The notes under the pieces were generated by a model. It was given only the letters and a program-made list of their open reading frames with translations, had not been told where the DNA came from and did not search any database. A DNA stretch of 58,273 bases from an uncultured Clostridia bacterium (GTDB lineage: Bacteria > Bacillota > Clostridia > Christensenellales > CAG-917), in the NCBI GenBank assembly GCA_949283145.1, contig CASDRL010000018.1, positions 1-58,273 on the forward strand, in the 5' to 3' direction. The translations under genes were made by a program, and so were the position numbers. Shown here one piece after another: positions 1-58,273 of the stretch (its first letter is position 1; each line of letters starts with the position of its first letter).

Positions 1-135
1 CACGGGGGAGGAAAGCCCGAATGGGGCTCCCCGCAAAATGCATGCATTTTGTGGGGTCCCCGGGTTGGAGGGGGAAATCAAGATAACCCTCGAGACGAAA
101 AGTTTGAGGGAGCGTGCCCGAGCATGACGAACACC
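1..135 (+). ncRNA. Copy A (3' part only) of the dispersed structured element
   Basis: The first bases (CACGGGGGAGGAAAGCCCGA) match positions 11055-11074 and the reverse strand near 33635-33655. They continue with the shared GAGACGA-AAG and GAGCATGACG tail. The GAA loop seen in the other copies is replaced here by a long palindrome (23-61), and the G-rich/C-rich stem is kept with different bases (GAGGG/CCCTC). Only the 3' part lies in the window. That this is RNA is inferred from comparison with copies B and C. Confidence 0.5.
23..61. repeat. Small palindrome of the CCCC...AAAAT/ATTTT...GGGG family
   Basis: Near-perfect palindrome with arms CCCCGCAAAATGCA and TGCATTTTGTGGGG, flanked by GGGG/CCCC. 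The same architecture recurs at 33480-33514, 40900-40934 and 40942-40979. Here it sits at the tip of a hairpin inside copy A of the structured element. Confidence 0.6.
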
Positions 136-9509: not shown

Positions 9510-10496
9510 ATGAAAGCCTGGCATATCGAGAATTTAGAACGCATCAAGCTCGTCGAGAGCGTGCTCCCCAAGCGGGAGGGCGAGGTCAAGCTCAGGGTCT
9601 CCAAGGTGGCGATCTCTTCCACCGATTTTGCCTATTTCGCGTCCGATTCTCCCAACAAAAACGCGCAGCTCACCGTGCCCGGGCACTCCGCCGTCGCGTA
9701 TATGTCCGAGGATGACGACAACCTCGTGCTCAAGATGGGCGCCAGGGTAGTGGTCAGCCCCTTTGTCAAGCACATCGAACACGGCGTGAGCAAGATCAGC
9801 GTGCTCGGCGTGGATGAGAACGGCTTGCTCTCCGACTTCGCGTCCGTGCCCGCAGAGAACGTCTACGCGCTCCCGGACGGCATCCCCGACGACGAGGCGA
9901 TCTTTGCGGAGTATATCGCGCTCGGCAACAACGTCCTCAACAGCCTGGAAGCCGGCAAGGGCGACTTTGTCGTCATCGTCGGTGCCAGCACCCTCGGGCT
10001 CATCATCGCGCAACTCGCGCTCTATTATCAGATGATCCCCATTCTCGTCGATCTCGATGCGGAGAAGCTCGCTCTTGCTGCAAGCTGGGGGGTCTATTAC
10101 ACCCTCAATCCCACCTACGACAACCTCGAACGCCGCGTGGAAGAGATCACCGGCGGAAGAATGGCGGAAAGCTCCGTCTATGTCGGCGACGGCGTGCCCT
10201 TCAACATGGCGCTCCGTCTCGTCAAGGACAAGGGCGAAGTGGTCGTCGCAGGCTATTCCGTCCGCTCCGGACACACCATCGACGTCAGCGTAGTCCTGCA
10301 AAAGCAGCTCCGCCTCATCGGCGTCGCGGACGGCTACGGCGAGATGTCCTCCGCCATCAACCTCCTCGCCAACCGCATCGTCAAGACCGACGGACTCATC
10401 AACTCCCGCATCGACTTTTCCGCCGTGCCCGAAATGGTCGTGCAGTGTGCGGAGTATCCTTATCAGTATAATAAGATCGTCGTCACCATCGACTGA
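9510..10496 (+). CDS. Zinc-independent MDR-superfamily dehydrogenase-like protein
   Basis: A 328-residue medium-chain dehydrogenase/reductase homologue. An N-terminal GroES-like fold (residues 1-130) is followed by a Rossmann domain with VVIVGASTLGLIIAQLAL near 152-169 and an acidic residue (VDLD) after the second strand, which suggests NAD(H). The catalytic-zinc Cys of alcohol dehydrogenases is replaced by Ser in AISSTD, the Glu after GHS is missing, and there is no four-Cys structural zinc loop. It is therefore zinc-free or has lost catalysis. The site AGAGGTGG precedes the ATG. The substrate is unknown. Its stop codon is built into the palindrome that follows. Confidence 0.8.
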   Translation: MKAWHIENLERIKLVESVLPKREGEVKLRVSKVAISSTDFAYFASDSPNKNAQLTVPGHSAVAYMSEDDDNLVLKMGARVVVSPFVKHIEHGVSKISVLGVDENGLLSDFASVPAENVYALPDGIPDDEAIFAEYIALGNNVLNSLEAGKGDFVVIVGASTLGLIIAQLALYYQMIPILVDLDAEKLALAASWGVYYTLNPTYDNLERRVEEITGGRMAESSVYVGDGVPFNMALRLVKDKGEVVVAGYSVRSGHTIDVSVVLQKQLRLIGVADGYGEMSSAINLLANRIVKTDGLINSRIDFSAVPEMVVQCAEYPYQYNKIVVTID

Positions 10497-10617
10497 ACGC
10501 GCTATTTCGCGAATTGCTTTGTCAGAGCGCTTGTTCCGGCTGCTCACGTACGCTTTAGTACGTTCCGCGCCTGAACCAAGCGCTCTTTCGCGCACTTCAT
10601 CGAAATATCGCGTTCAG
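10493..10617. repeat. Stop-codon palindrome, copy 1
   Basis: A 125-base imperfect palindrome starting at the TGA of the dehydrogenase. Outer stem CTGAACGCG (10493-10501) pairs with CGCGTTCAG (10609-10617). Next come TATTTCG/CGAAATA, the middle stem AGAGCGCTTG/CAAGCGCTCT, and a conserved tip GCTCACGTACG...AGTACG. Copies at 33331 and 57814 keep the same architecture with different but still complementary outer and middle stems. The middle stem is followed by T-rich sequence, so it could also act as a terminator. Confidence 0.75.
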
Positions 10618-10620
10618 CGA

Positions 10621-11140
10621 ATTAGCGTTTGTGCGGGCGTCTTGGAGCACGACGGCTCTCTTTCGGAGACGGTTTAACGAAAACTCCGAGCGTGACGTCG
10701 CTTGACACGACGCTCACTCATTCGGAGTGGAGCCGCTCCCCAACGGGCGCTTATTAGGAGCGTCTTTGAGCACGCTGTCTCTCTTTCGAAGACGGAATTA
10801 CGCGCCGCTCAGCCAAACTTGCACAGCAGGCGTTTGCGCCTGCTCTTGCAAGTCGCGGCGCGCTAAGTGAGTGCCGAGCGCTGATGAAACATTAAGTAGA
10901 CACGGGCGTTGTGCGCGAGCGCCGAATTCCTCCGCCCGTGCCGGGTTTTCAGTAAGTGCTGTTCGCCGCTTGGTTATGTCGGTGCGATATTAAAAACTTT
11001 TGTAGAGATGTCAAATTAGTCCCGCATGATGCGAGGACTGCACTCTAATCGGACACGGGGGAGGAAAGCCCGAAGGGAAGGAGGGGGAATTCTAACTCCC
11101 CGCGAGACGAGAAGTATATTCAAAGCGTCCCCGAGCACGA
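10621..11140 (+). ncRNA. Copy B (full) of the dispersed structured element
   Basis: No plausible coding frame. The 5' part (10640-10800) is two related hairpin units with NTTCG loops and the phrase GAGCACGAYG. The core (10800-11130) matches the minus strand of 33575-33905 almost base for base, except in stems. There the hairpin AGCAGGCG/CGCCTGCT (10825-10844) is replaced by CGTGGGCGA/TCGCCCACG, both inside the shared stem ACTTGCA/TTGCAAGT. Other stems are CACGGGCG/CGCCCGTG and AGTCC/GGACT. The tail is GAGACGAGAAG...GAGCACGATG. RNA nature is inferred from this paired change. It might be the guide-type RNA of an IscB/IsrB (HEARO-like) element, but I cannot confirm that, and no nuclease gene is linked. 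Confidence 0.6.
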
Positions 11141-11149
11141 TGAAGCCCC

Positions 11150-11201
11150 CCCCATCCGAGGACAGGGGCCTGACAAAGCAATTCGCAAAATAGCGCCGTC
11201 A
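11150..11201 (-). repeat. Half-copy of the stop-codon palindrome at the DUF4364 stop
   Basis: Read on the minus strand it runs from the DUF4364 TGA into GGCGCTATTTTGCGAATTGC and TTTGTCAGG. That matches the 5' arm at 10497-10526 in inverted orientation. Copy B of the structured element is thus bounded on both sides by about 27 bases of inverted repeat. The conserved GCTCACGTACG tip is missing in this half. Confidence 0.6.
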
Positions 11202-11738
11202 GTCTAAGAGGGTGTCGTGGATCAGAGCATAAGTCTGCGAAGCCTTATCCACCCAGCTCTTGTAGAGATATTTTGCAAGCTGGCGGTTAGCGACAACGAG
11301 CTTCAGCTCCATGAGCGTGGCGATGTCGCTGTTGATCTTCATGATGACGGTGTAGGTGCCGTCGGCGTTCTTGGAGTAGTCGCAGAAATAGGACTGACGC
11401 TTCTTGTAGCGCATCCTGTTTTCACGCGCGTAGGCGTTGATATCGTCGCGGACGGAGGTTGGGATGCGGGTGAAAAAGAGCGCAAGGCAGCCGATGCCGT
11501 CCTGCGTGATGTTGATATATTCGCTTTTCGGGACGCGGTAGAGGAGATTGGTGTCGATGAGTTCGCCGAGATACTGTTTGCAGTCCATATAGGTCAGCCA
11601 GTCGTTTTCGGACGTGCAGATGTCCAGCAATGCCGCTTCGGAAAGCGAGATCGCCATTCTGTCGAAAACGAAAAGGATGATCAGCTTCTGGATCTTGCTG
11701 TCCATCTGTGCAGGGATGCCGTCTTGCTCGAAACTCAC
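11199..11738 (-). CDS. DUF4364 family protein
   Basis: A 179-residue member of DUF4364, a clostridial family of small cytosolic proteins with a winged-helix-like N-terminal part (QKLIILFVFDRM...YMDCKQYLGELID). A DNA-binding role is plausible but unproven. The GTG at 11736-11738 is chosen as start because AGGAGG lies 6 bases upstream. A TTG further upstream would place that ribosome site inside the gene. The stop codon directly abuts a half-copy of the stop-codon palindrome. Confidence 0.82.
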   Translation of the reverse strand: MSFEQDGIPAQMDSKIQKLIILFVFDRMAISLSEAALLDICTSENDWLTYMDCKQYLGELIDTNLLYRVPKSEYINITQDGIGCLALFFTRIPTSVRDDINAYARENRMRYKKRQSYFCDYSKNADGTYTVIMKINSDIATLMELKLVVANRQLAKYLYKSWVDKASQTYALIHDTLLD

Positions 11739-21638: not shown

Positions 21639-21713
21639 CAATTAAACAATTGGGGACGGGGCAAAATTGTTTAAAAATTTGACAATTTTGCCCCGTCCCC
21701 AATTGTTTAATTG
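21639..21713. repeat. REP hairpin (REPIN), upstream copy
   Basis: Perfect long hairpin with arms AATTAAACAATTGGGGACGG-GGCAAAATTGT and complement around the centre TTAAAAATTTG. The copy at 22547 has the centre CAAATTTTTAA, the exact reverse complement, so the two copies are mirror images around the transposase gene. Confidence 0.85.
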
Positions 21714-21768: not shown

Positions 21769-22536
21769 ATGTCGAGATTGCCGCGCAAAGCGTTTGAGAC
21801 CAATTATTATCATGTCATCGTTCAGGGCATAGGAAAGGAAAAGATCTTTGAGCGGGGGTGGATGAAAGCCGAGTATCTGAATGACCTTGCTCTTTACAAA
21901 GATATCCACGAGATCAAGGTGCTGACCTATGTGGTGATGGACAATCATTGCCATATGCTGTTATATGCACCGGATGCCGCATCGCTCGGCGCATACATGC
22001 GCAGGGTGAACACCCGCTATGCTCAGTTTTATAATCACGCATGTGAAAGAGTGGGCTATGTGTTCCGCGACAGGTATAAAAGCCAGGCGATCTTCGACAA
22101 TGATTATTTGATAAACTGCATGGTTTATATACACAATAATCCTGTTAAAGTCGGAATCGTGCAAAATCCCGCCGATTATGCACATTCGGGGCTGCAATGT
22201 TATTACGGCAGGGCCGGTCTCGTGGATCGAGACGCGGCGGCAGAGTTTTTCGATGTCGATGCCGCAAATGTCGAAGCGGTGATGCAGGAAAAATCGGCGC
22301 AGGCGGATGTGTGGTGCCCGGAGTGGCTGGATGTGCCCGAGGAGAGCAGGAGCGCCGAGGAGATGATCGCGGATGTGGTGGCGCGCTGCGGCGTGGCGAA
22401 GGAGCTGTTGCGTTATGACAAGGAGAGGCTCAAGAAGGTTGTTGGGCGGCTGGAGGCTGCGGGTGTAAGGCAAGGAGAGATCGCGGAAGCGATCGGGATG
22501 TCAAGGGCGTCCTTGTGGGCGATGTTGAAAGAGTGA
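21769..22536 (+). CDS. REP-associated tyrosine transposase (Y1, IS200-like)
   Basis: A 255-residue RAYT-type single-strand transposase. The HUH-type motif is in VVMDNHCHMLLY near residues 55-66. The RAYT signature YIHNNPVKVGIVQNPADYAHS is near 122-142, with the catalytic Tyr region just before it. The extra C-terminal helix-turn-helix (QGEIAEAIGMSRASLWAM) is found in many RAYTs. Length is complete and no frameshift is seen, so it is probably active or recently active. It has its own promoter at the border of the left REP hairpin. Confidence 0.88.
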   Translation: MSRLPRKAFETNYYHVIVQGIGKEKIFERGWMKAEYLNDLALYKDIHEIKVLTYVVMDNHCHMLLYAPDAASLGAYMRRVNTRYAQFYNHACERVGYVFRDRYKSQAIFDNDYLINCMVYIHNNPVKVGIVQNPADYAHSGLQCYYGRAGLVDRDAAAEFFDVDAANVEAVMQEKSAQADVWCPEWLDVPEESRSAEEMIADVVARCGVAKELLRYDKERLKKVVGRLEAAGVRQGEIAEAIGMSRASLWAMLKE

Positions 22537-22546
22537 GTTTTTTGAT

Positions 22547-22617
22547 TTTAAACAATTGGGGACGGGGCAAAATTGTCAAATTTTTAAACAATTTTGCCCC
22601 GTCCCCAATTGTTTAAA
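22547..22617. repeat. REP hairpin (REPIN), downstream copy
   Basis: TTTAAACAATTGGGGACGGG arm plus complement, about 10 bases after the RAYT stop. Its centre is the reverse complement of that in the upstream copy. Confidence 0.85.
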
Positions 22618-23249
22618 AGAGAGGGGCGGAGGGGGCGGAAGGGAAAGATTAAAAAGGGGGAGGGGGTGAGGTGACTTTGGTTAAGGGGTTGAAAGGGGTG
22701 GGGGAGGAGTGGTAAGATTAGTTTGCATAAAGTATTCTGTGCATATGCGCGCTTTGCGCGCGCGTTTGGGGAACGCTGAGGGCTCAAACACCCGAAAGCA
22801 AAAAACTGAATCGCGATGCGTCGTCGTCAAGCGGCTGCCGAGCCGAGCAGGCACCCGAGCCATAAGGCGGGAGAGGATGTCAGGTCGTCAAGCCAATTGG
22901 GGACGGGGCAAAAATGTTTCAAGTGCGCGGTGCGCCCCGAAACATTCCGCAAAGAGCTTTTCCCCCCGTCCCCCTTCACCGCGAACGGGCGGGCGAGGCG
23001 GACGAAGGACAGCCGAAGCGGCACCCCGCGCGAGAGAGACCTCTCCCGGCGGGGCAGAAAAGCCGAAGCGGCGGCACCCGTCCCCCTTCACCGCGAAGGG
23101 GCGGGCGAGGCGGACGAAGGACAGCCGAAGCGGCGGGGAGCCGCGGGGCTGAAAGCGTGACCCGATACGCGCAGGCGCATAATGTGCGTGTGAGCGGAAT
23201 ATAAAGATTTTTGAAAGCAAAAGGGAAGTTGCTTTTGAGAGGTGGGATT
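22618..23249. other. Gene-free leader region with direct repeats and one REP arm
   Basis: A possible promoter TTGAAA (22689) / TAAGAT (22713) has 18-base spacing. A single REP arm is at 22894-22920. A direct repeat of about 57 bases (CCCTTCACCGCGAA...GACAGCCGAAGCGGC) occurs at 22966-23022 and 23077-23134. No coding frame is convincing. It lies between the RAYT unit and the giant surface gene. Confidence 0.45.
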
Positions 23250-26200
23250 ATGAGAAAGAGCCGTAACGGGCAGGTAAGGGCTTTTGCCGTTGTTGCGAAA
23301 TTTTCGGTGTTGCTGATGTGCTTTGCGACGATATTCGCCTTGGTGCTGACCACGGGCGTATTTGACGTCGGCGGAAGCGACATGAGCGCGAATGTTGCGG
23401 ATGCGGAACATAGTGGCGGCAGCACAAGTGCGATCTCATTGGACAGTGCGGATAACCAGAACGCCACCGTACACAACGCCATGCACGGCAACAGCACCGC
23501 AGCGCAGACTTTCACATATGACCTGTCGAACTACGACTTCAGTGAGAAGAGCACATCGTTGTACAACGATTCCGATAGCGGAACAAACATAATTTTCTGG
23601 CATGGTCAAACTCATAAAGGTAACGTAGACAGAAACGATCCCGCAGACCTCAACGATGACGGATATGACCATGCATGGGGGGTCGGCGGTGATTCTTGGT
23701 ACGCCATTGGCCGTGGGGGAACCAACTATGCGGCGATAAATGTCACCATACCAACAATCATCCAAAATTACAGAAAAGCAGGTTTCACAGTCACGGCATA
23801 CTATACCGCGACGCTTTACGGCTATAAAGCGAAATATTCGGATAAGGATACTTATATTGGCATTTACGCATCCGACAGAGCGCAGAGCGCGAACACATAC
23901 GGAAACGGGCAGATGCAAAATAAAGCCGACAACTACGAGAACGGCATAAACAGGACTTCCGTGACGTTGACTTTGGCGGAAAACAGCACAAATCTGACTC
24001 TTTATATCGGGCGTGGGATAACTACTACTAATGCAATAGCACCCGATACAAATGGCAGTTGCCGATCAAGCATGATCTGCGCGGCGAACACGAAGGTGGT
24101 GTTCACCGTCACCCCCAAGCCGTCCTCAATGCCTTCGGACGGGAATGCGCCGAGTGTGAGTTTTATGTCGGGGACGACGAATACGTGGCTCGGGAGCGGA
24201 AATCTCGGGGGCTTTATGAGCAGCGGCAGCGCGCTCTTTGACGAAATAGCGGGTCACCTGGATTCCACGACGGACAGCTCGTGGCTCAATCCCTCCGACA
24301 ACGCGGGTTCCATCAGCCTTGCGGGCGTGGTGGCGAAGAAGAATTCGCTGGAAGTCGGAGAAGAAGGAGTCAGCGACGTCTCGTCGAAATATGCAAAGAA
24401 GGCGGTGTTCACCGTCAAGGAAAGGAATGCGAACAGCGGCGAAGCCAGCATCTATGAGCCAGGTTATTACGCGGGGCTTGCGGGCATCAAGGCGGGCAAT
24501 GCGCCGTTGACGGGCACGATCTACAACAGTTCGTATCTGTCCGGAGAGTTCACCTACACGGCTACGGGCGGAGGCACGGGCAACGGGTATTACTACTGGA
24601 AGGTCAACGACCAGGGGCGGACTGCGGGCACGCTGACGCTCTATTTCAACGATAATGCGGAAAACATCGAGGTGCTGATCTACGACTCGGGCGGGAGCTA
24701 TTTCACGCTCAACATCAAGGTGGACGGCATCAAGGACGGCGGCGACGATCTGACGGGCAGCGCGAGCATCACGGACGGCACGAGGATGAAGGACGGGAAC
24801 TCGGCGACCTTCGACGGGCTCACCTGGGAATGGAACAATCTCACGCCCGATTTCGCGAACATGGGCAGCGGGCTTAACGAGCAGATCTGGTTCTACGCCG
24901 TGGAGAGATATGACAGTGCAGACGCGGCTCTCGAAGCGCTCGGGACCGGGACAAACCTTTATCAGGGCAAAACGGGGAGCAGCGGGCTGCAACCGATAGG
25001 GTATTCCGTGGACGGGGCGCTGACGAGGTTTTCCGGCACGGGGTATGATTTCGACAGCGGGACGTTCGACGGCGCGGCGCCCATCAACGGCGGGAGCGCT
25101 ACGGGGAGCGGGTGGTACCGCTTCGAGTTCTATCCCATGAACTATGCGGGATACATCGGCAAGCCGGTGGTCAGGCTGGTGAAGGCGGATGTCGCGGTGG
25201 GCGAGGTGGAAGTCGTCCTGACCTATTCGCCCGAGGAAAGCGGCACGTTCGGCAGGTTGTGGTCGGCGGCCGACACCAAAGATTTCGGCAGGATCACTTT
25301 CGATGAGGCAGGCGCGTATGTGGGCACCGATCTCACCGCAAAGGTGACGTTTGCGCCCAACTTCTCCGGCAACAGAGTGCACGTGCTCGGTGCGGACGGA
25401 CAGAATTACATAGTTTATGTCAGCGGCGGCAAGATCACGGGCATTTACGGCGCGGACGGCATCTCGGCAGCGGACGACTGGAAGAATGCGGACGGCGTGT
25501 GGAGCATGGCGGAGGGAACCGCTTTCGGCGGAGTGAAAGTCTCTGTCGCGGAGGATGAGGACGGCAAAGTCGTGCTTTCCGCCACATACACGGGCTTGGA
25601 CCGCGCGGTGGTCGAAGAGGTCTGCGACTTCCGCGTGTACAGCAATGCGGATGACAATGGCGCGCTCGACGAAAGCGTCAGCAACATGCACAGCGAGTGG
25701 GGGAGCGGCGCGACGCTCAACATCGACCTCGCGGCTCCCGCGCAGGCTGTGAGCGGGAATGGGTTCGTCATCAAAAACGACAAGAACACCATCCCCGCGG
25801 GCACGGACAGAAAGTGGTACACCGACTCGAACTGGACGCTCGATGCGGATATGACCGTCACGGGAGAGTACGACACGCTCTATTATGTGACGCAATATTA
25901 CAAGGGAACCGTCGGGCAGACCCAGGGCAGCACCGATTTCTCGGACGGCCTTAAAAACTATCAAAACATATACAACGCCGCTTCGCTCGACCTCACCGGT
26001 TTCACGGACGAAGATCATTTTGGTAACGACGGGAAACACAGTCTCCACCTCGATTTCGGCGAGATCGCGGGCAAAGCGGAGCAGGCGGGCTATTATGTCG
26101 TGTACATCGTGGTCAAGGACCGCGCGGGCAACGTCAGTGAGCTCGGCGTGTTCGGCGTGCTGGCGGACGGGCATGAGTACAAAATCTCGGTGGAGATCGA

Positions 26201-29200
26201 TCAAGATACTCTCGATGAGCTCGGCAACAGCCCCTATGACCTGACCCGGATCGTCACCGACGAGGAAGGGAATGTGCAGACCACTTTCCGCCGCGGCGAG
26301 ACGATCAGGTTCGTGCCCAAACTCACCGACGAGTCTTACGCGGGCGCGTACGTACCTTATGAGATAAAGAAATACAACGCGGAGACGGGCGCGGTCATCG
26401 ACGCCAGCCCCATCTACTCTCATGAGGATGACGACATCACTTCCGGGTTCAATGCGGACTACATCCTTTCGGGGTATGCCTACGCGCGCCTGATCGAGGG
26501 CGGCAGCGGGCTGGAACTCGACGTCGACCGCAATTCCGTCGCGAATCTGCCCATCGCGGACGGCGGGCAGACGAAACTCGTCTTCTCCTACCGCAGGGTC
26601 ATGAAAGCGACCTACAACCTGAACGTTTCCTACACGGGCGAAGAGATCACCGCGGAAGTCACCGAATTGTTCACGGACGGCAACCCCGCACAGAGTCAGA
26701 GTCCCGACGGCCCGACGATCACCGCGAAGCCTTATAAGGTGGTGTATCCCGGCAACTTTGTCGTGGACGGCATCACCCATGCGGGCAGCTATGCGGTGCA
26801 GATCCTGCGCCAGAAATCCGAATTCTATGTGCTGAGCGCGGAAGTGACGGACAACCTCCTCACCGTCACCCCCGTCGCACTCAATGTCGCGGCTTCGATG
26901 AACCCGACCGGCGGCGCGTTCTCGTTCCATTTCGGCGACATGACGCCGGCGAATGCGCAGGGTCTGCTCGGGCTCCAGTATGACATCACGAGCGGGCTTG
27001 TCGGACAGGACAAGGACAAGGCGTTTGAAGCGCTTTATGAAGCGAACATCGCGGTCAGCATCTCCAACATGCCGGAGGGCAGCTACGTCGCCTTAGGTCC
27101 GCATACCGTCACCGCCACCCTTACCGCGAAGGACTACACCGTCACCCTCACCTGGGGGGAGAGCGGCGGCTCGTTCAACATCGTGGCAAGACCGATGTCG
27201 TTCACCGTACAAAGCCCCGCGTCGGTCACTTACGGCGACCCGATGCCCGCGGAGTACACCGTCAGGCTGCTTAAGAGCGCGTTCGCGTTCGACAGCGCGG
27301 AACAGGGCGGGCTCGAGCTCTATCAGACCGCGGAGCAGGTCAAGGCTCTCATCGGCTACGATGTGACGGACGACGGCGGCGACTACTATGAGTTCAAACT
27401 CCCGGCGTCGGCTTTCGCGGCGTTCGAGAAGAACGACGCGGGCTTGTATAACGTCGGCGATCATCCCATCGCGGACTTCAACCAGGGGAGCACCTCGGTC
27501 AACAACAGGCTGGCACTGAGAGTTGCGGAGGACAGCGAGGGCAAAGTGACCGTCACCACCCGCACCGTCGAGGTCAGCCCCGTCGGCGACGGCACGACCA
27601 TCGACATCGAGAAAGAGAGCGAGATCGCAGATCTCACCTTTAATATCTCCGCCACCGCCGAGACCGACGCATACAGAGTGACGGGCGTCTTTGTCGCGGG
27701 CGAGAGCACCGGCACGGAGAATGTGTACTACATCGTGGCAGGTCCGGACGGCTTCGGTTCCGCTCACAACGAATACGACGAGAATAATGTCGAGGTGAAG
27801 GTTGCCGACGGCGAATGGACTTTCACCGTCCATTACATCACGCCGGAAGGGCAGTTCGTCATCACGTTTAATGCGGGCATCTTCACCGTCACTTACGGCG
27901 AGCTCTTTGACGCAGACGCCATCGCGGCGGCGGGCGGCGGCTATTACACCGTCGAGTACTTCCCCAGGGACGGGGAGGGCGGCTATGCGACAGAGCCCGC
28001 CGCTATTCCCACCGGAGTCACTCTTGATGTGACGATCGGGGTCGCAAACTACAACACTTCCGATGCCTTTGCAAACAATGCAGGAAACTACAACCTCACC
28101 GTGAGCGCGCAGGCGCAGGGCGCTCCCGAGGGCGTGTTCTACACCTACGCGTACAAGACCGCGGACGGCGCTCTGCCGGCGTATGTCACCGTCAAGACTT
28201 TGCAGGCGACCGTGAAGGTCAGCGAGGGCACCCCGCTCAGCAAAGAGTACGGCGTGAACGACCCCGCCATAGATCCCGAGGCGTTCGGGTTCGATTTCTC
28301 GGACGATAACGGTCTCATCGACGAGTTCATCAAGGAGAAGGGCGAGATCTCGGTCAAGAACATCGGGGCAGGCTGGGACAGGCTCGCCAAAGTCGGTAGC
28401 GACTATAAGTATGATTGGAGCGGCTGCACATTCACCGCGGGCAATGACACGATCATCAGCTCCAACAACATCAAGTTCACCGTTGTCGACGACGGTGTGA
28501 GGTTCAAGATCACGCAAAAAGTGCTCAACATCGATGCGCTCATCGGGAACGGCGGGCTCATCGTCACCGCGGGAAACAAGCCTTATAACGGCAATTCCAC
28601 GGCGAACGCGACGCTCGAGTTCGGTTCCGTCGGTGAGAACAGCGTCATCATCAACGAGGATAAAGTCACGCTCTCTTACACCGCGGAGTACTGGAACGGC
28701 ACTCAGACGGTCTCCGACATCTCTTCCGGCGAAGGGTATCACATCATCTTCCACGGGATCGGGATCAGCGGAGCCGACGCCGGCAACTACAGGCTCGAAG
28801 GCGGCGACACCGTGGAAGGCTTCGAGGCTTTGGTGTTCATCACCCCCGAGAGCGGCTATCAGATCGACCCCAACCCCATCAACATATTGACGGAATACTT
28901 CACCGTGAGCAAGATCTACGACGGCAACACCGGTGTGACGACAGGCAACATCAAGATCACCGGGCTCTCTCTCGGCAGATGGGAGCTGCTTGAGGACGGC
29001 AGCTTTGCCGCGGCGCAGGCGGGCATCACAATGGCGAGTTTCGTCATCGTCTTCCCCGACACCGAATATCCGCAGGCGGTCCTGGACCCGGACGGCGGCA
29101 GAGGGATCGAAGATTACTACAAGTTCGACACCGCCTACTTCTCGGTGGAGCAGTCGGACGAGGGCGGCATCAAGCTCATCTGCTCAAACATCGACGCCAC

Positions 29201-32200
29201 CATCGGCAAGAAAGCCATCAACCTCGGCGACATCGAATTCAAGTTCACCGCGAAAGATATGACCAAGGAGTATGACGGCACCGCCGGCTTCGACGTGCCG
29301 TTCGGGTTCACCGACGCGTTTGCGGGCTCCGTCACCGGGTTCGTCGCCGAGAATGTCGGGCTCTCCTTCGAGGGCAGCGTGTCGAGACCGGACGTCGCCG
29401 AATATCCGCTCATCATCGACAGCATCGGCCTCGACGACGATGTCAACTATGAGATAGGCGAGACCCTCACCGCGGAGAACGCGGCATTGAGGATCAACGA
29501 CGGCCGCACGCCCTTCTCCATCACCCCGAAAAAGCTCCGTCTCGACATCGTGTTCGCGGAAGCGTCGTACAGCGGCAAGCCCGGTCCGACGACGGCATCC
29601 GACACTCCCGTGGTGATCCGCGGGCTTGAAAACGGCGAGACGGCGGTGATCAAGGACGCCACATACGAGTACGTGCGACCCGTCGTCGGCGAGGACGGCA
29701 CCGTTAAATACGAGGCTTTCCCCTACGTGCAGACGGGCGAGGGCTACTACGACGGCGCGACTTATCTCCACGACGTCCGTGCGGGCTTCGTCATCGCGGT
29801 GGGCAACGGCTTCAAGTGGGAAAACTACAAGCTTGATGTGAAATACGAGGCGACCTCGACGCCTGGCGAATACAACGTCTCAGGGCTCATCCTCGAGAAG
29901 GCTGCGGTGCTCAACCCCGCAGAGGTCACGCTCAATGTCACGGTCAGCGGCGACTATATCACGGTCAATGCCAAGACCTATGACGCGACGAATGTGGCTA
30001 CGATCACCATCGGGGAGGCGGCTTATCGCGACGAGTTCCACGGAGAGGACTTCTCGCACCTCGACTTCTCCTACACCGCGACATTCACGAGCGTGAATGC
30101 GGGCAGCGGGATCGACGTCAGCGTCTCCGAACTGGCGCTCATCGCGGAGGACGGATATGAGTATATCGCGGACAGCTACAAGATCGCGGCGGACAGCAGA
30201 TCCTTCACGCTGAAGAACGCCGGCACCATCAATAAGGCGCCCGTCAAGGTGCAGCTCAACATCCCCGAGAAGGTCTACGACGGCACCCGGTATGTCGAGC
30301 TGAGCCCCGGCGCGAACATCGGCACGCTTCTGAATGTGGACGGGTCGGCGGATTGGGCTGTCGCGGGCGAGAAGTTCGCCGGCAACTATTCCGTCCAAGC
30401 CATCGCCGCAGGCTATGACGACGCAAACGTCGCTTCCGGTGCGGGCTACGCAAAGACGGGCACCGTCATCGGGTTCAAGCTCGTCAATGACATGGGCGGC
30501 GCGGTCAACTACTACATCGTGGATGCGGACAAGAACACCGCGTACTTCAATGCGTACAGCGAGGAGGCGCTCGGCGACAAGCTCGAGGGGGCTCTCGCTT
30601 ACATCGAAGGCGTGTATTCCGACGGCGGCGAACTCCGCTACATCATCAGGAAAGATGATGTGACGGCGGCGGGCGTCGACGGCATCGATCCCGTCACGAC
30701 CTTCACGGCAAACTATGCGGAAGGCGAGGGCGCGATCGAGCCCGCTACGGTGAGCTTCTCCGTCGTCATTGTCGACAAGCCGGCGTTCAGAAAGCAGTTC
30801 GACGACACCTCCGCGCTCCCCGACCAGCCCGTTTACGGCACGAAAGGCGATGCGGAAGGGACTTACGACTTCTACATCAGGCTGTCCGACGGCGGGACGG
30901 GATTCAGCTTCCAGCAGAGCGATTTCGTCATCAGGCTCGCGGGCGCGGAAGTCGGCAACCAGGATATCATCTTCACCATCAGCAGATCCGAGATCGGCAA
31001 CTACATCTTCAACACGGACAACAGCGTCACCGTCCCCGGCGGTGAGATCACCAAAGGGAAGTCGCTCTCCGTCACCGCGACGTCGAGCTCCGGCGGCGAC
31101 ATCACCGGCACTTACGGCGATGTGGGGCTGGATCATACCGTCAAATACACCTATCAGGGCACCGGTTCCAACCCCGTGACCCTCACCGTGGCGGACGGCT
31201 ATGCCTATGTCCTCGAGGCTGATTGGAAGACGCTCTTCGAGCACAACAATGTCCCCGACGAGGTCAATGCGCGCCGCTATAACTACGCGGACGGCAAGTG
31301 GACTCAAGTCGACGACGGCGCGTATATCCGCATCACCGGCACATTCGGCACGCCCGTGCTCAGCACGGCGGGCGGCACTTCGTTCGTCGACAGGGACGGC
31401 GTCGTGACTGCGGCTGCGGGCACCTATGAGAACGCGAAACTCAGCGTGACTTCACAGAGCTTCACGCTCAACACGCCGAGCAACATCAAGGTCGTCATTT
31501 CGCCCAGGACGCTGCAAGTCTTCGTCACCAATGCGAACGAGCAGGGCAACTTCACGGCGGATTACTTCGTCGGCAAGCTTCCCAAGCCCGTCTTCGCCCT
31601 CCTGAATGAGAGTGAAGTCGCGTCCATCGACAACAAGAATGAGGTGCTCGGTTCCGTGCACGGAGTCTTCATGAACGTGAACGACGGTCAGCCCGTTGCA
31701 AACCTCAACATCAACAAGGACGGCAACTATGTCCTGGCGGTGAGCTCCGACAACGGCAACTACGCCGTCGTGCTCGTGGGCGCGGACGGCGAGAGTGCGG
31801 AGCACAAGCTCGTCGTCACCATCCCCGCACTCAGCGCCACGCAGTATAAGATCGCGAACCTGAACACCCGTCCCTATGAGCTCGATGAGGAAGGCGATCC
31901 CGTCGCGCTTGACGCGAGCGATCTGCTCGTCCGCTACGACGCTGCGATGGATGAGATTGTCGAACTCAAATGGACGACGAAAGATGGCACGGAGGTCGAG
32001 TCCGGGGCTCCCACCGACGCGGGCGAATACAAGTGGTCCATCAAGGTCCAGAGAAAGATCGGCGGCACTTATGGCTATTGCTATGACGGCGTGTTCGAAG
32101 CAGAGGGCACTTTCACGATCACGCAGCGCAAGATCAACGTCTCGCTGAGAGAGCCCGTGGACTTCACCTATGGTGACGACAAGAAGCATTCCGTCACGAA

Positions 32201-33335
32201 AGAGATGCTCGTCTCAAAAGATGTCTTGAGCGGGACGGAAATGAGCCAGTTCATCGAAGGCATCGGCATCAGCTATACCTTCAAGGGCGAGCCCGTCGAG
32301 GGCAATGAGATGATCAACGCGGGCGGCTACACCGTCGTGCTCGACTTCACCGCCAACCCGAACTATGTCATCTCGAGCAACATCACCGTCTATGTCAAAG
32401 CCAAGCCCGTCACCGTCACGGTCAACGAGAAAGAACCGATCTATGACGTCGCGGCAGGCATCACCGGCATCACGTTCTCCGCAAGCGGCGGCATGAGCAC
32501 GGAGGACTTCACCGTCGAGTACCGCAACGGCAACGGTATGGTGGTCGATTCCGTCACGACGCCCGGCGTCTACACCTACACCATCAGGAGCAACAGCTCG
32601 AACTATATCGTCAACGGCGACAGCACCGGTAAGCTCTCCATCGGCGTCTCCAAGGTGACCTACACCAAGAATGACGTCGACTATGTCACCATCGACTTCG
32701 GCGAGCTCGTCACCGTCAACTACCGCATCAACGACATCGCCGTCTCCGACAACAGCAGCTACTGGAAGGTCGTCGACAGCAATGTCAAGGCGCTCGCGGG
32801 CGAGGACGGCGATCTGATCACGAACGGCATCCTGCGCCTCGAGGTCGAGGGTGCCAACGGCATCGTCACCAACTTCTCCAAGGGCGTGACCGTCACCGCG
32901 CGCATCCCCGAGGGCGTCGGCGCAGACTTTGCGCTCTACCGCGTCACTTCGGCAGGCGGGCTCGAACTCGTCACGGACTACACCGTCGCAAACGGCACCG
33001 TCACCTACACGACCGACTACATCTCCAGCCTCGTGTTCGTCGGCAACGCTCCTGCGGCAGGGTTCACCCAGTGGTGGATCATCCCCGTCATCGCGGCGGC
33101 GCTCATCCTGCTCATCGCGGCGGCGATCCTCATCGCGGTGCTCGTCAAGCTGCATCGTGCGCCCGAGCCCATCCCCGTTGAGGTCGCGCCCATCGACTCC
33201 ATCATGCCCGCGCCTCCCGCGCCCGCAGCCCCCGTCATCGTCAACGTTCCCGCCGCCGACATCGAGCCCGTGAACTACGATGCGCCTGCGGCTGTGAGTA
33301 GGCATAGGCAGCCGCCCATCATCGGCATACGCTAA
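23250..33335 (+). CDS. Giant MBG/YDG-repeat surface protein with C-terminal membrane anchor
   Basis: A 3361-residue secreted protein. The ATG at 23250 follows GAGAGGTGGG. A TTG at 23211 has no such site. Residues about 10-40 form a signal/anchor segment. The first ~1250 residues are Gly/Ser/Asp-rich beta-type sequence. From about residue 1330 to 3000, MBG and YDG-type modules follow with the recognisable openings VTYGDPMPAEY, KEYGVNDPAI, KIYDGNTGV, KEYDGTAGF, KTYDATNVAT and KVYDGTRYV, each roughly 80-120 residues. The end has one membrane helix (about 3275-3300) and a Pro/Ala-rich cytoplasmic tail. There is no LPXTG sorting signal, so it is held by the helix. A role as a long adhesin or stalk is inferred. 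The stop codon lies in a palindrome. Confidence 0.85.
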   Translation: MRKSRNGQVRAFAVVAKFSVLLMCFATIFALVLTTGVFDVGGSDMSANVADAEHSGGSTSAISLDSADNQNATVHNAMHGNSTAAQTFTYDLSNYDFSEKSTSLYNDSDSGTNIIFWHGQTHKGNVDRNDPADLNDDGYDHAWGVGGDSWYAIGRGGTNYAAINVTIPTIIQNYRKAGFTVTAYYTATLYGYKAKYSDKDTYIGIYASDRAQSANTYGNGQMQNKADNYENGINRTSVTLTLAENSTNLTLYIGRGITTTNAIAPDTNGSCRSSMICAANTKVVFTVTPKPSSMPSDGNAPSVSFMSGTTNTWLGSGNLGGFMSSGSALFDEIAGHLDSTTDSSWLNPSDNAGSISLAGVVAKKNSLEVGEEGVSDVSSKYAKKAVFTVKERNANSGEASIYEPGYYAGLAGIKAGNAPLTGTIYNSSYLSGEFTYTATGGGTGNGYYYWKVNDQGRTAGTLTLYFNDNAENIEVLIYDSGGSYFTLNIKVDGIKDGGDDLTGSASITDGTRMKDGNSATFDGLTWEWNNLTPDFANMGSGLNEQIWFYAVERYDSADAALEALGTGTNLYQGKTGSSGLQPIGYSVDGALTRFSGTGYDFDSGTFDGAAPINGGSATGSGWYRFEFYPMNYAGYIGKPVVRLVKADVAVGEVEVVLTYSPEESGTFGRLWSAADTKDFGRITFDEAGAYVGTDLTAKVTFAPNFSGNRVHVLGADGQNYIVYVSGGKITGIYGADGISAADDWKNADGVWSMAEGTAFGGVKVSVAEDEDGKVVLSATYTGLDRAVVEEVCDFRVYSNADDNGALDESVSNMHSEWGSGATLNIDLAAPAQAVSGNGFVIKNDKNTIPAGTDRKWYTDSNWTLDADMTVTGEYDTLYYVTQYYKGTVGQTQGSTDFSDGLKNYQNIYNAASLDLTGFTDEDHFGNDGKHSLHLDFGEIAGKAEQAGYYVVYIVVKDRAGNVSELGVFGVLADGHEYKISVEIDQDTLDELGNSPYDLTRIVTDEEGNVQTTFRRGETIRFVPKLTDESYAGAYVPYEIKKYNAETGAVIDASPIYSHEDDDITSGFNADYILSGYAYARLIEGGSGLELDVDRNSVANLPIADGGQTKLVFSYRRVMKATYNLNVSYTGEEITAEVTELFTDGNPAQSQSPDGPTITAKPYKVVYPGNFVVDGITHAGSYAVQILRQKSEFYVLSAEVTDNLLTVTPVALNVAASMNPTGGAFSFHFGDMTPANAQGLLGLQYDITSGLVGQDKDKAFEALYEANIAVSISNMPEGSYVALGPHTVTATLTAKDYTVTLTWGESGGSFNIVARPMSFTVQSPASVTYGDPMPAEYTVRLLKSAFAFDSAEQGGLELYQTAEQVKALIGYDVTDDGGDYYEFKLPASAFAAFEKNDAGLYNVGDHPIADFNQGSTSVNNRLALRVAEDSEGKVTVTTRTVEVSPVGDGTTIDIEKESEIADLTFNISATAETDAYRVTGVFVAGESTGTENVYYIVAGPDGFGSAHNEYDENNVEVKVADGEWTFTVHYITPEGQFVITFNAGIFTVTYGELFDADAIAAAGGGYYTVEYFPRDGEGGYATEPAAIPTGVTLDVTIGVANYNTSDAFANNAGNYNLTVSAQAQGAPEGVFYTYAYKTADGALPAYVTVKTLQATVKVSEGTPLSKEYGVNDPAIDPEAFGFDFSDDNGLIDEFIKEKGEISVKNIGAGWDRLAKVGSDYKYDWSGCTFTAGNDTIISSNNIKFTVVDDGVRFKITQKVLNIDALIGNGGLIVTAGNKPYNGNSTANATLEFGSVGENSVIINEDKVTLSYTAEYWNGTQTVSDISSGEGYHIIFHGIGISGADAGNYRLEGGDTVEGFEALVFITPESGYQIDPNPINILTEYFTVSKIYDGNTGVTTGNIKITGLSLGRWELLEDGSFAAAQAGITMASFVIVFPDTEYPQAVLDPDGGRGIEDYYKFDTAYFSVEQSDEGGIKLICSNIDATIGKKAINLGDIEFKFTAKDMTKEYDGTAGFDVPFGFTDAFAGSVTGFVAENVGLSFEGSVSRPDVAEYPLIIDSIGLDDDVNYEIGETLTAENAALRINDGRTPFSITPKKLRLDIVFAEASYSGKPGPTTASDTPVVIRGLENGETAVIKDATYEYVRPVVGEDGTVKYEAFPYVQTGEGYYDGATYLHDVRAGFVIAVGNGFKWENYKLDVKYEATSTPGEYNVSGLILEKAAVLNPAEVTLNVTVSGDYITVNAKTYDATNVATITIGEAAYRDEFHGEDFSHLDFSYTATFTSVNAGSGIDVSVSELALIAEDGYEYIADSYKIAADSRSFTLKNAGTINKAPVKVQLNIPEKVYDGTRYVELSPGANIGTLLNVDGSADWAVAGEKFAGNYSVQAIAAGYDDANVASGAGYAKTGTVIGFKLVNDMGGAVNYYIVDADKNTAYFNAYSEEALGDKLEGALAYIEGVYSDGGELRYIIRKDDVTAAGVDGIDPVTTFTANYAEGEGAIEPATVSFSVVIVDKPAFRKQFDDTSALPDQPVYGTKGDAEGTYDFYIRLSDGGTGFSFQQSDFVIRLAGAEVGNQDIIFTISRSEIGNYIFNTDNSVTVPGGEITKGKSLSVTATSSSGGDITGTYGDVGLDHTVKYTYQGTGSNPVTLTVADGYAYVLEADWKTLFEHNNVPDEVNARRYNYADGKWTQVDDGAYIRITGTFGTPVLSTAGGTSFVDRDGVVTAAAGTYENAKLSVTSQSFTLNTPSNIKVVISPRTLQVFVTNANEQGNFTADYFVGKLPKPVFALLNESEVASIDNKNEVLGSVHGVFMNVNDGQPVANLNINKDGNYVLAVSSDNGNYAVVLVGADGESAEHKLVVTIPALSATQYKIANLNTRPYELDEEGDPVALDASDLLVRYDAAMDEIVELKWTTKDGTEVESGAPTDAGEYKWSIKVQRKIGGTYGYCYDGVFEAEGTFTITQRKINVSLREPVDFTYGDDKKHSVTKEMLVSKDVLSGTEMSQFIEGIGISYTFKGEPVEGNEMINAGGYTVVLDFTANPNYVISSNITVYVKAKPVTVTVNEKEPIYDVAAGITGITFSASGGMSTEDFTVEYRNGNGMVVDSVTTPGVYTYTIRSNSSNYIVNGDSTGKLSIGVSKVTYTKNDVDYVTIDFGELVTVNYRINDIAVSDNSSYWKVVDSNVKALAGEDGDLITNGILRLEVEGANGIVTNFSKGVTVTARIPEGVGADFALYRVTSAGGLELVTDYTVANGTVTYTTDYISSLVFVGNAPAAGFTQWWIIPVIAAALILLIAAAILIAVLVKLHRAPEPIPVEVAPIDSIMPAPPAPAAPVIVNVPAADIEPVNYDAPAAVSRHRQPPIIGIR

Positions 33336-33569: not shown

Positions 33570-33950
33570 CATGCTCAAATGCGCTCTATCAAACTTCTCG
33601 TCTCGGGGGTGAGTTAGAATTCCCCCTCCTTCCCTTCGGGCTTTCCTCCCCCGTGTCCGAACAAGTGCAGTCCTCGCATCTTGCGGGACTAACTTTGCAT
33701 CTCTACAAAAGTTTTAAATATCGCACTGACATAACCGAGCGGAGAACTGCACTTACCGAGAACCCGGCACGGGCGGAGGAATTCGGCGCTCGCGCACGAC
33801 GCCCGTGCCTACTTAATGTTTCGTCGGCGCTCGGCACTCAGATAGCGCGCCGCGACTTGCAAGCGTGGGCGAAAATTCGCCCACGGTGCAAGTTTGGCTG
33901 AGCGGCGCGTAAGACCGTCTTCGAATGAGAGACGGCGTGCTAAGAGACAC
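33570..33950 (-). ncRNA. Copy C (full core) of the dispersed structured element
   Basis: The minus strand of 33575-33905 matches 10800-11130 throughout, but stems differ in a paired way. The hairpin at 33855-33894 is CGTGGGCGA/TCGCCCACG where copy B has AGCAGGCG/CGCCTGCT. CCGAGCG pairs with CGCTCGG here and with CGCTTGG in B (G-U pair). AAGTGCAGT/ACTGCACTT is perfect here. The GGGGG/CCCCC stem near the 3' end is longer than in B. The tail GAGACGAGAAG...GAGCATGG is shared. There is no coding frame. It points away from rpiB. Confidence 0.6.
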
Positions 33951-34116
33951 TCTATCAAGCTGTCTGGTTGCAACAGCTTGGGGTGTGTAGGTATAATATT
34001 CCCGCAAGCAAAATTTTTCGGCGCTATTCCTTGACAAAACGAGCGTATGGGGAAGAAGTAAAGCAATAGTGCGGGGGTGTGGGGGTATAATACCCCCACA
34101 AGCACGAAATTAACTC
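33951..34116. other. AT-richer spacer with a repeated palindromic phrase
   Basis: GGTATAATATTCCCGCAAG (about 33991) and GGGTATAATACCCCCACAAG (about 34083) are related phrases. The second forms the palindrome GGGGGTATAATACCCCC. No gene is seen. Confidence 0.4.
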
Positions 34117-57937: not shown

Positions 57938-58273
57938 CGAATAAGTGCTTGAGCGGGTGTCTTTGAACACGATGTTACTCTTTCGGAGACGAAATTACGA
58001 ACAGCCGGAGCGTGACGTCGCTTGACACGATGTTATCTCATTCGGAGTGGAGCCGCTCACCAACGCGCACTCGTTCGGAGTGTATTTGAGCACGATGTCT
58101 CTCTTTCGAAGACGGTCTAACGAAAACTCCGAGCGTGACGTCGCTTAACACGATGTTATCTCATTCGGAGTGGAGCCGCTCACCAAGCGCTCACAGGGCA
58201 TAGCCCTCTTGAGCGCCGCGGCGACCGGGTTAGTGCCGAGGGCTGGACGGTAGGGCGCCGGCAATGCGCCATC
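57938..58273 (+). ncRNA. Copy D (5' part) of the dispersed structured element
   Basis: Begins GCGAATAAGTGCTT as after copy 1 of the palindrome. Two tandem units follow (about 57965-58075 and 58076-58190), each with the CTCTTTCGRAGACG hairpin and GTGACGTCGCTT...CGATGTTAT. That stem is CGTCG/CGACG-CTCAC in copy B and is kept here by G-U pairs. The core starts with CCGCTCACCAA, and its first hairpin is GCGCTCA/TGAGCGC with AGGGCATAGCCCT inside, unrelated in sequence to copies B and C but in the same place. It is then followed by CGCGGCG and AGTGCCGAG as in the others. The window ends inside it. Confidence 0.55.

What the first reader, a model, noticed from the sequence alone, without database searches (positions are those of the whole stretch)
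10621..11140. Large dispersed non-coding element with paired base changes: a candidate structured RNA family
Seen: four copies (1-135, 10621-11140, minus strand 33570-33950, 57938-58273). Linear sequence is conserved in loops, but helices are replaced as pairs. The first core hairpin is AGCAGGCG/CGCCTGCT, CGTGGGCGA/TCGCCCACG, and in the fourth copy GCGCTCA/TGAGCGC with AGGGC/GCCCT. CCGAGCG pairs with CGCTTGG or CGCTCGG. No copy has a reading frame, and all sit in intergenic DNA. Inference: a ~400-500-nt RNA, perhaps mobile or acting in trans. Guide RNAs of IscB/IsrB elements (HEARO type) are one known precedent for such copies without a gene, but I could not match the consensus.
Basis: partly seen in the sequence, partly recalled or inferred. 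Interest (0 to 1): 0.87.

Follow-up and report, generated by a model that had tools for sequence, protein, structure and literature searches.

The report
Scattered repeat with triple-helix fold
A non-coding sequence present in dozens of copies in this bacterium's genome keeps one strand foldable through paired base changes and is predicted to close into a three-stranded helix; it likely spreads as mobile DNA, which would make it a much larger relative of the small triplex repeats described from E. coli.

Summary
In this genome, of the genus Candidatus Limadaptatus (Clostridia), a covariance model matches at least 60 places (60 of 60 candidates scored). No Rfam family reaches its gathering score and no reading frame is conserved. 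Hairpin H1 and a 15-pair long-range helix (pyrimidine tract with purine tract) carry 134 double-change cells against 38.9±4.8 in shuffles. A second purine tract, reached through a CCC-GAA-GGG mini-hairpin, mirrors the first and changes with it; where it has U, it lies opposite A in 25 copies and opposite G in one. This is the base code of an antiparallel purine-motif triple helix. HEARO, TnpB, IS110 and RT readings fail. The closest known kind is the BoxC/PIT intrastrand triplex repeat, a DNA structure with loops of 1-6 nt. I favour a mobile repeat whose single strand folds, more likely DNA than RNA. A RAYT-like gene lies in the window; RAYT is in 6 of 7 element-rich and 0 of 3 element-poor Limadaptatus genomes, but in none of four sister-genus genomes with 7-23 copies. 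Whether RNA or ssDNA folds is untested.

The parts
10621..11140 (+). full copy of the dispersed element (finding)
   Evidence: model R1 matches 10913-11100, E 5.5e-59
10637..10679 (+). upstream repeat unit (GCGTC..GAGCACGACG..CTTTCGGAGACGG)
   Evidence: direct repeat D1
10760..10802 (+). second upstream repeat unit, 81% identical, next to H1
10801..10862 (+). hairpin H1 (three stacked helices; the inner two covary, the outer one hardly varies)
10927..10942 (+). pyrimidine strand Y of long-range helix P_b (TTCCTCC-g-CCCGTGCC)
11051..11066 (+). purine strand R of P_b (GG-a-CACGGGGGAGGAA)
11069..11077 (+). mini-hairpin CCC-GAA-GGG that would turn the chain back
11078..11087 (+). predicted third strand AAGGAGGGGG, mirror of R
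33593..33952 (-). second full copy (type A)
1..135 (+). 3' part of a copy cut by the contig end; hairpin insert between mini-hairpin and third strand
57938..58273 (+). 5' part of a copy cut by the contig end (repeat units, shortened H1)
10491..10525 (+). left arm of a 35-nt, 91% complementary inverted repeat around this copy (palindromic repeat neighbour)
   Evidence: only 1 of 94 copies has both arms
11170..11204 (+). right arm of that inverted repeat
21769..22536 (+). RAYT-like Y1 transposase, 255 aa; candidate mover in trans (inferred)
   Evidence: PF01797 39.8 bits over cut-off 23; NF047646 71.1 bits, below its cut-off of 80
21644..21709 (.). GGGGACGGGG..CCCCGTCCCC palindrome left of the transposase gene
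22550..22615 (.). same palindrome right of the transposase gene

Best explanation
It is a non-coding repeat with at least 60 matches in this genome, one strand of which keeps two helices by compensatory change and is predicted to close into a purine-motif triple helix; it likely spreads as a mobile element that folds as single-stranded DNA, perhaps moved in trans by the RAYT-like transposase encoded in the same window. Shown: the copies, the absence of a conserved reading frame, hairpin H1, the 15-pair helix P_b between the Y and R tracts, and a third tract that follows R by the rule G opposite G and A or U opposite A. Inferred: when a strand is exposed, Y pairs with R, the chain turns at the CCC-GAA-GGG mini-hairpin and the second purine tract lies antiparallel in the groove of Y:R (G.G-C, A.A-U, U.A-U triples). 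Inferred: this compact fold is what the moving machinery or replication reads, so that copies which fold are the ones that are copied on. The element would then be a large cousin of the BoxC/PIT repeats, with 42-191 nt between Y and R in place of 1-6 nt.
For: Copies. H1 and P_b together: 97.6% of cells paired, 134 double-change cells against 38.9±4.8 shuffled, slid controls 0-14; P_b alone 57 against 20.1±2.8. P_b holds the two best covarying column pairs of A1, comes third and fourth after the two H1 stems in a de novo stem scan of A2, and appears in single-sequence folds with RNA and DNA parameters. In the sister genus Y and R have changed together to UUCCCCUCCCACAAG/CUUGUGGGAGGGGAA and other forms. 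Third strand, 160 copies: opposite R=A: A 440, U 25, G 24, C 1; opposite R=G: G 1069, A 21, C 1, U 1 (which takes one spurious entry out); 142 of 165 entries obey the code at all of the first 8 positions; U variants are in G000, G009, G008 and sister-genus copies. Mobility: a site filled in L139 is empty in three relatives; at 5 orthologous sites two species hold the element in opposite orientations. RAYT in 6 of 7 Limadaptatus genomes with 16 or more matches, 0 of 3 with 0-1; in G005 the RAYT gene lies between two inverted copies. Strand asymmetry G-U:A-C 43:5.
Against: No RAYT in G007 (16 matches) nor in sister-genus G024, G026, G031, G038 with 23, 9, 16 and 7, so RAYT is not needed there. 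Conversely Y1 transposases occur in G013, G017, G030, G033 and G034, which have no match, and in G012, which has one. The RAYT genes of G000, G003, G008 and G012 have GGGGACGGGG palindromes at the gene, those of G004, G005 and G009 related palindromes: these, not the element, look like the cognate repeats. No ends or target duplication were defined; both-side inverted repeats occur in 1 of 94 copies. At seven other pairs of orthologous sites the orientation agrees, so shared sites need not mean movement. Long conserved unpaired stretches suit an RNA or protein target as well. 12 of 39 sister-genus copies carry a Y mismatch (TTCCCATCCC). 23 of 165 entries break the code in the first 8 positions, partly through wrong register, 4 inserts and one spurious entry. 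In the covariation test the counts of pairs with a double change and of pair types do not exceed shuffles.
Confidence: 0.48

Rival explanations
1. It is a structured RNA family, expressed from many copies and acting in trans or helping its own spread, and the triple helix (if any) forms in RNA.
For: Strand-specific fold (G-U:A-C 43:5), compensatory change, stretches that look unpaired and conserved across two genera, low folding energy (z -3.0 as RNA).
Against: In the window copy the scan gave no + strand promoter and no terminator after the element: one promoter-like site lies on the - strand inside it and one terminator-like stem upstream of H1, against shuffle means of 0.2 and 0.8. The minus strand folds no worse (z -4.5). 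Orientation to neighbouring genes is close to random. No RT in 9 of 10 genus genomes. Purine-motif triplexes are reported not to form in RNA.
Confidence: 0.3
2. It is passive cargo of other intergenic repeats (palindromic MITE-like and GGGGACGGGG repeats), and the fold is left over from an earlier role.
For: A MITE-like end lies upstream of 20 of 94 copies at 5 or fewer mismatches against 0 in shuffles; GGGACGGGG motifs are denser near copies than away from them in G000, G004, G007, G008 and G009, though near stretches are mostly intergenic; the window copy sits inside 35-nt inverted repeats.
Against: Only 1 of 94 copies has the ends on both sides; the GGGACGGGG motif is not found near copies in G003 or the sister genus (few copies there); compensatory change across copies and genera needs selection on the fold itself.
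Confidence: 0.12
3. The two purine tracts are a G-quadruplex or a protein-binding site rather than two strands of a triplex.
For: Both tracts are G-rich and nearly invariant within type A.
Against: Mirror symmetry is kept through several sequence states, U appears opposite A in 25 copies and opposite G in one, and the pyrimidine tract changes with both. A quadruplex or a binding site explains none of these.
Confidence: 0.12

Closest known systems
BoxC / PIT / TM_ECO intrastrand triplex repeats (Holder et al. 2015, PMC4666352; abstract, section 10 and found passages read)
   Same: Y, R and a reverse-Hoogsteen strand on one strand, purine motif, triplets GGC, AAT, TAT, dispersed copies, stems of about 10 nt.
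   Different: Their finder takes loops of 1-6 nt; here the first loop is 109-153 nt in Limadaptatus and 42-191 nt in the sister genus, the second 10-12 nt with a mini-hairpin, and a covarying hairpin and repeat units precede it. Theirs is treated as DNA; ours shows three-strand covariation between genera.
REP/BIME elements and RAYTs (PMC2817692 and PMC3733652; found passages read)
   Same: Intergenic, many copies, mosaic of hairpins in both orientations, narrow taxonomic range, a RAYT in most element-rich Limadaptatus genomes.
   Different: REPs are 20-40 bp palindromes tagged GTAG or CGTC; the core here is some 300 nt with a long-range helix, and RAYT is absent from the sister-genus genomes with 7-23 copies.
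HEARO (IscB/IsrB omega RNA; features recalled)
   Same: Large structured element in many copies without a gene.
   Different: No Rfam match, and no IscB or TnpB found in the genomes.

Membership tests
HEARO / IscB omega RNA | match to the Rfam covariance model | tested here: not met
   no match at gathering score over the window; not among the 5 weak matches at E up to 10 over 10400-11300
HEARO / IscB omega RNA | IscB/IsrB gene in the genome | tested here: not met
   PF14239: 0 of 16 genomes over cut-off; one sub-threshold match in a 1334-aa frame of G002, which has no copy; the control rang in 0 of 14 genomes, so no positive control
TnpB reRNA | TnpB gene in the genome | tested here: not met
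   PF07282: 0 of 16 genomes; control rings in 6 of 14
IS110 bridge RNA | IS110 transposase in the genome | tested here: not met
   PF01548: 0 of 16 genomes; control rings in 4 of 14
RT-borne element (group II intron, retron) | reverse transcriptase in the genomes that hold it | tested here: not met
   PF00078: 1 of 10 genus genomes, G005 only
BoxC/PIT intrastrand triplex | Y-R-third strand on one strand obeying GGC/AAT/TAT | tested here: met
   code read
BoxC/PIT intrastrand triplex | loops of 1-6 nt between stems | tested here: not met
   first loop 42-191 nt, second 10-12 nt; ITxF limits read
BoxC/PIT intrastrand triplex | triplex shown by CD or NMR on the isolated strand | not testable with these tools
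   needs an experiment
REP/BIME moved by RAYT | RAYT present where the repeat is abundant | tested here: inconclusive
   6 of 7 rich and 0 of 3 poor Limadaptatus genomes; 0 of 4 sister-genus genomes with 7-23 matches; Y1 genes also in 5 genomes without a match
REP/BIME moved by RAYT | RAYT gene flanked by inverted copies of the repeat | tested here: inconclusive
   seen in G005 only; other palindromes are found at the gene in G000, G003, G004, G008, G009 and G012
REP/BIME moved by RAYT | 20-40 bp palindrome with GTAG or CGTC tag | tested here: not met
   core of 295-307 nt; definition read

The most novel reading that the evidence does not exclude
This is a large natural RNA, encoded dozens of times per genome, that holds a ten-layer purine-motif (reverse-Hoogsteen) triple helix inside a long-range fold, a structure reported as impossible in RNA, revealed by three-strand covariation across two genera.
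Probability: 0.17. Interest if true: 0.93.

Novelty: new variant of a known kind. Interest (0 to 1): 0.74.

Why it matters
As far as the passages I read show, intrastrand triplexes in bacterial genomes were inferred from sequence pattern and oligonucleotide tests. Here three tracts change together over many copies and two genera, so evolution itself tests the triplex code. The family gives natural variants (A, U and G changes) for asking in the laboratory whether such a helix forms in DNA, in RNA or in both, and whether a mobile repeat is selected for folding into it. If the RNA form is real, a stated exclusion falls.

Tried and rejected
HEARO/IscB, TnpB, IS110 and RT partners: rejected (the IscB search had no positive control). 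A recurrent partner gene beside copies: none seen; the larger clusters were mostly frames inside repeats. Phage or plasmid origin: no DNA match in phages or plasmids, no viral contig with the motif. A MITE-type composite with ends on both sides: 1 of 94 copies. Wider spread: R1 over 396 genomes of the order, few candidates scored per genome, matched 17, of which 15 in the family; of the two others G091 lies in what reads as a coding frame and G370 is a short repeat with the same three-tract layout. A first third-strand count without fixed register was replaced; one search took a spurious entry out of it.

Rows dropped before counts: 4 of the 87 loci (other phyla, taken as chance) were left out throughout. 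A1: of 140 motif places 112 were picked (27 printed as without anchor, one ran off its locus), 81 after removing near-duplicates, 70 within 180-192 nt aligned; the 11 left out are 3 longer ones and 8 from the sister genus. A2: 52 of the 70, those with the H1 start inside the held DNA; 165 entries, 39 without a recognised Y and 9 with poor Y pairing dropped; 4 insert-type entries left out of its base table.

Full report
What was checked. The region 10621-11140 was used as a DNA query against its own genome (G000, 1.72 Mb, 81 contigs) and gave 49 matches. Of 100 genomes (G000 and 99 relatives) 13 match, in 2 of 59 genera. Contig lengths link G009 to CALWAF, G008 to CALVQW, G004 to CALVKQ, G003 to DVJC and G007 to DVOE; the last two are named Candidatus Limadaptatus, so the window's genus is that one. 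Several contigs of G000 end inside copies, as does the window at both ends: the repeats broke the assembly.

Copy number. Model R1 (188 positions, from alignment A1 of 70 copies) was run over the 43 genomes of the family. Seventeen have a match: G000 60 and G008 60 (all candidates scored, so lower bounds), G009 56, G005 55, G004 40, G003 26, G007 16, G001 and G006 1 each, G002 0. In the sister genus g4 G024 has 23, G031 16, G026 9, G038 7 and the others 0-3. Of G000's 60, 47 are in the printed list, all below E 1e-47. Over 396 genomes of the order, with few candidates scored per genome, 17 match, 15 of them in the family.

Helices. The stem scan on alignment A2 (52 copies) ranks first the two inner helices of hairpin H1 and then pieces of a long-range helix here called P_b; in A1 the two best covarying column pairs of all are in P_b. 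Counted with controls, H1 plus P_b have 97.6% of cells paired, 134 cells with a change on both sides against 38.9±4.8 in 500 shuffles, and a covariation score of 0.232 against 0.091±0.006; sliding the partner by 1-3 columns leaves 0-14 such cells. The number of pairs with a double change (10) and of further pair types (22) does not exceed the shuffles (55 and 426 of 500 reach them), so the strength lies in joint change, not in many types. Shuffles do not remove relatedness. The outer H1 helix hardly varies and says little. P_b in type A is UUCCUCC-g-CCCGUGCC with GG-a-CACGGGGGAGGAA. Other lineages read CCCGUGCAG/CUGCACGGG, CCCAC/GUGGG, UUCCUC-g-CCCCGCGCGG/CCGCGUGGGGGAGGAA and CUCCUC-g-CCCCGC/GUGGGGGAGGAG (read); the sister genus has UUCCCCUCCCACAAG/CUUGUGGGAGGGGAA. 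Single-sequence folding of the window copy shows P_b with RNA and with DNA parameters. Over H1 and P_b, G-U outnumbers A-C 43 to 5, which points to one strand as the selected one; this holds for RNA and for ssDNA.

Third strand. One or two bases after R comes CCC-NNN-GGG and then a second purine tract that mirrors R: AAGGAGGGGG (type A), GAGGAGGGGG (type B), AAAGAGGGGG and AAGGGGUGGG (sister genus). In 160 copies the base opposite R=A is A 440, U 25, G 24, C 1, and opposite R=G it is G 1069, A 21, C 1, U 1; part of the exceptions come from the register chosen by the script. One search lists 26 copies with U in the third strand: one of G000 (L024), one of G009 (L043), two of G008 (L116, L121) and 22 of the sister genus; the single U opposite G is one of these, in the script's register (L227). 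142 of 165 entries obey the code over the first 8 positions. G.G-C, A.A-T and T.A-T are the purine-motif triplets used by the ITxF finder. The triplex itself is therefore predicted, from three-strand covariation, not shown. Against it: 12 of 39 sister-genus copies have a mismatch in Y.

Mobility and mover. Copies lie beside varied genes in all orientations, with no recurrent partner. At one site the element, with other repeats, is present in L139 (G007) and absent from three relatives with the same flanking genes. At five orthologous sites two species carry it in opposite orientation: L002/L122, L013/L149, L015/L047, L022/L119 and L064/L155; L034/L057 is ambiguous, since L034 has a copy in each direction. 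At others the orientation agrees (L001/L113, L009/L086, L014/L076, L022/L160, L031/L151, L032/L112, L048/L090). No exact ends were found; the window copy lies in 35-nt inverted repeats, but this holds on both sides for 1 of 94 copies only. The window encodes a RAYT-like Y1 transposase (21769-22536; reading HCH and YIHNNPVK as its catalytic motifs is recalled). A relative of it occurs in G000, G003, G004, G005, G008, G009 and G012 (7 of 18 searched), thus in 6 of 7 Limadaptatus genomes with 16 or more matches and 0 of 3 with 0-1, but in none of G024, G026, G031 and G038. Y1 genes also occur in G013, G017, G030, G033 and G034, which have no match. In G005 the gene lies between two inverted copies of the element; palindromes with GGGGACGGGG or a related core are found at the gene in the others and in G005 too. 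RAYT as mover is thus a suggestion for Limadaptatus and unsupported for the sister genus.

Comparison. Holder et al. (PMC4666352: abstract, section 10 and found passages read; [quoted passage not shown] Our element shares the code and the three-tract layout but not the loop limits. My paper searches listed none whose title or shown abstract describes this family; three papers name Limadaptatus (listing only). Most subscription journals are not held. Found passages of PMC2817692 and PMC3733652 were read for REP, BIME and RAYT features.

Judgement. Structure: well supported. Triplex: likely. Mobile: likely. DNA rather than RNA: moderately favoured, because of the reported chemistry, the near-random orientation and the lack of a convincing promoter.

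Noticed in passing
L263 (G370, another family of the order), minus strand, around position 1584 of the reversed locus: A short repeat CCTCGCCCCCGTGAGGGGGAGAGG-T-GCCCGAAGGGC-GGAGAGGGG has the same layout of Y, R, mini-hairpin and mirror tract within some 50 nt: a BoxC-like motif in a distant clostridial genome.
   Followed up: partly
window 21644-21709 and 22550-22615: Near-identical palindromes on both sides of the RAYT-like gene contain CCCCGTCCCC; PMC3733652 reports no RAYT flanked by CGTC-tagged repeats. Whether these are CGTC-tagged REPs was not tested.
   Followed up: partly
window 23211-33335: Open frame of 3374 aa on the + strand, not studied.
   Followed up: no
window 1-135; L029, L044, L060; L046: In some copies a GGGGCTCCCCGCAAAATG..TTTTGTGGGGTCCCC hairpin is inserted between mini-hairpin and third strand, which then reads TTGGAGGGGG or a like start in the first four (U opposite A again) and AAGGAGGGGG in L046.
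   Followed up: partly
L002/L122, L013/L149, L015/L047, L022/L119, L064/L155: Orthologous intergenic sites hold the element in opposite orientations in two species: in-place inversion or repeated insertion.
   Followed up: partly
L265 (G002): Sub-threshold RRXRR match inside a 1334-aa frame, perhaps a Cas9-type protein (guess from size, recalled), in the genus genome without copies.
   Followed up: no
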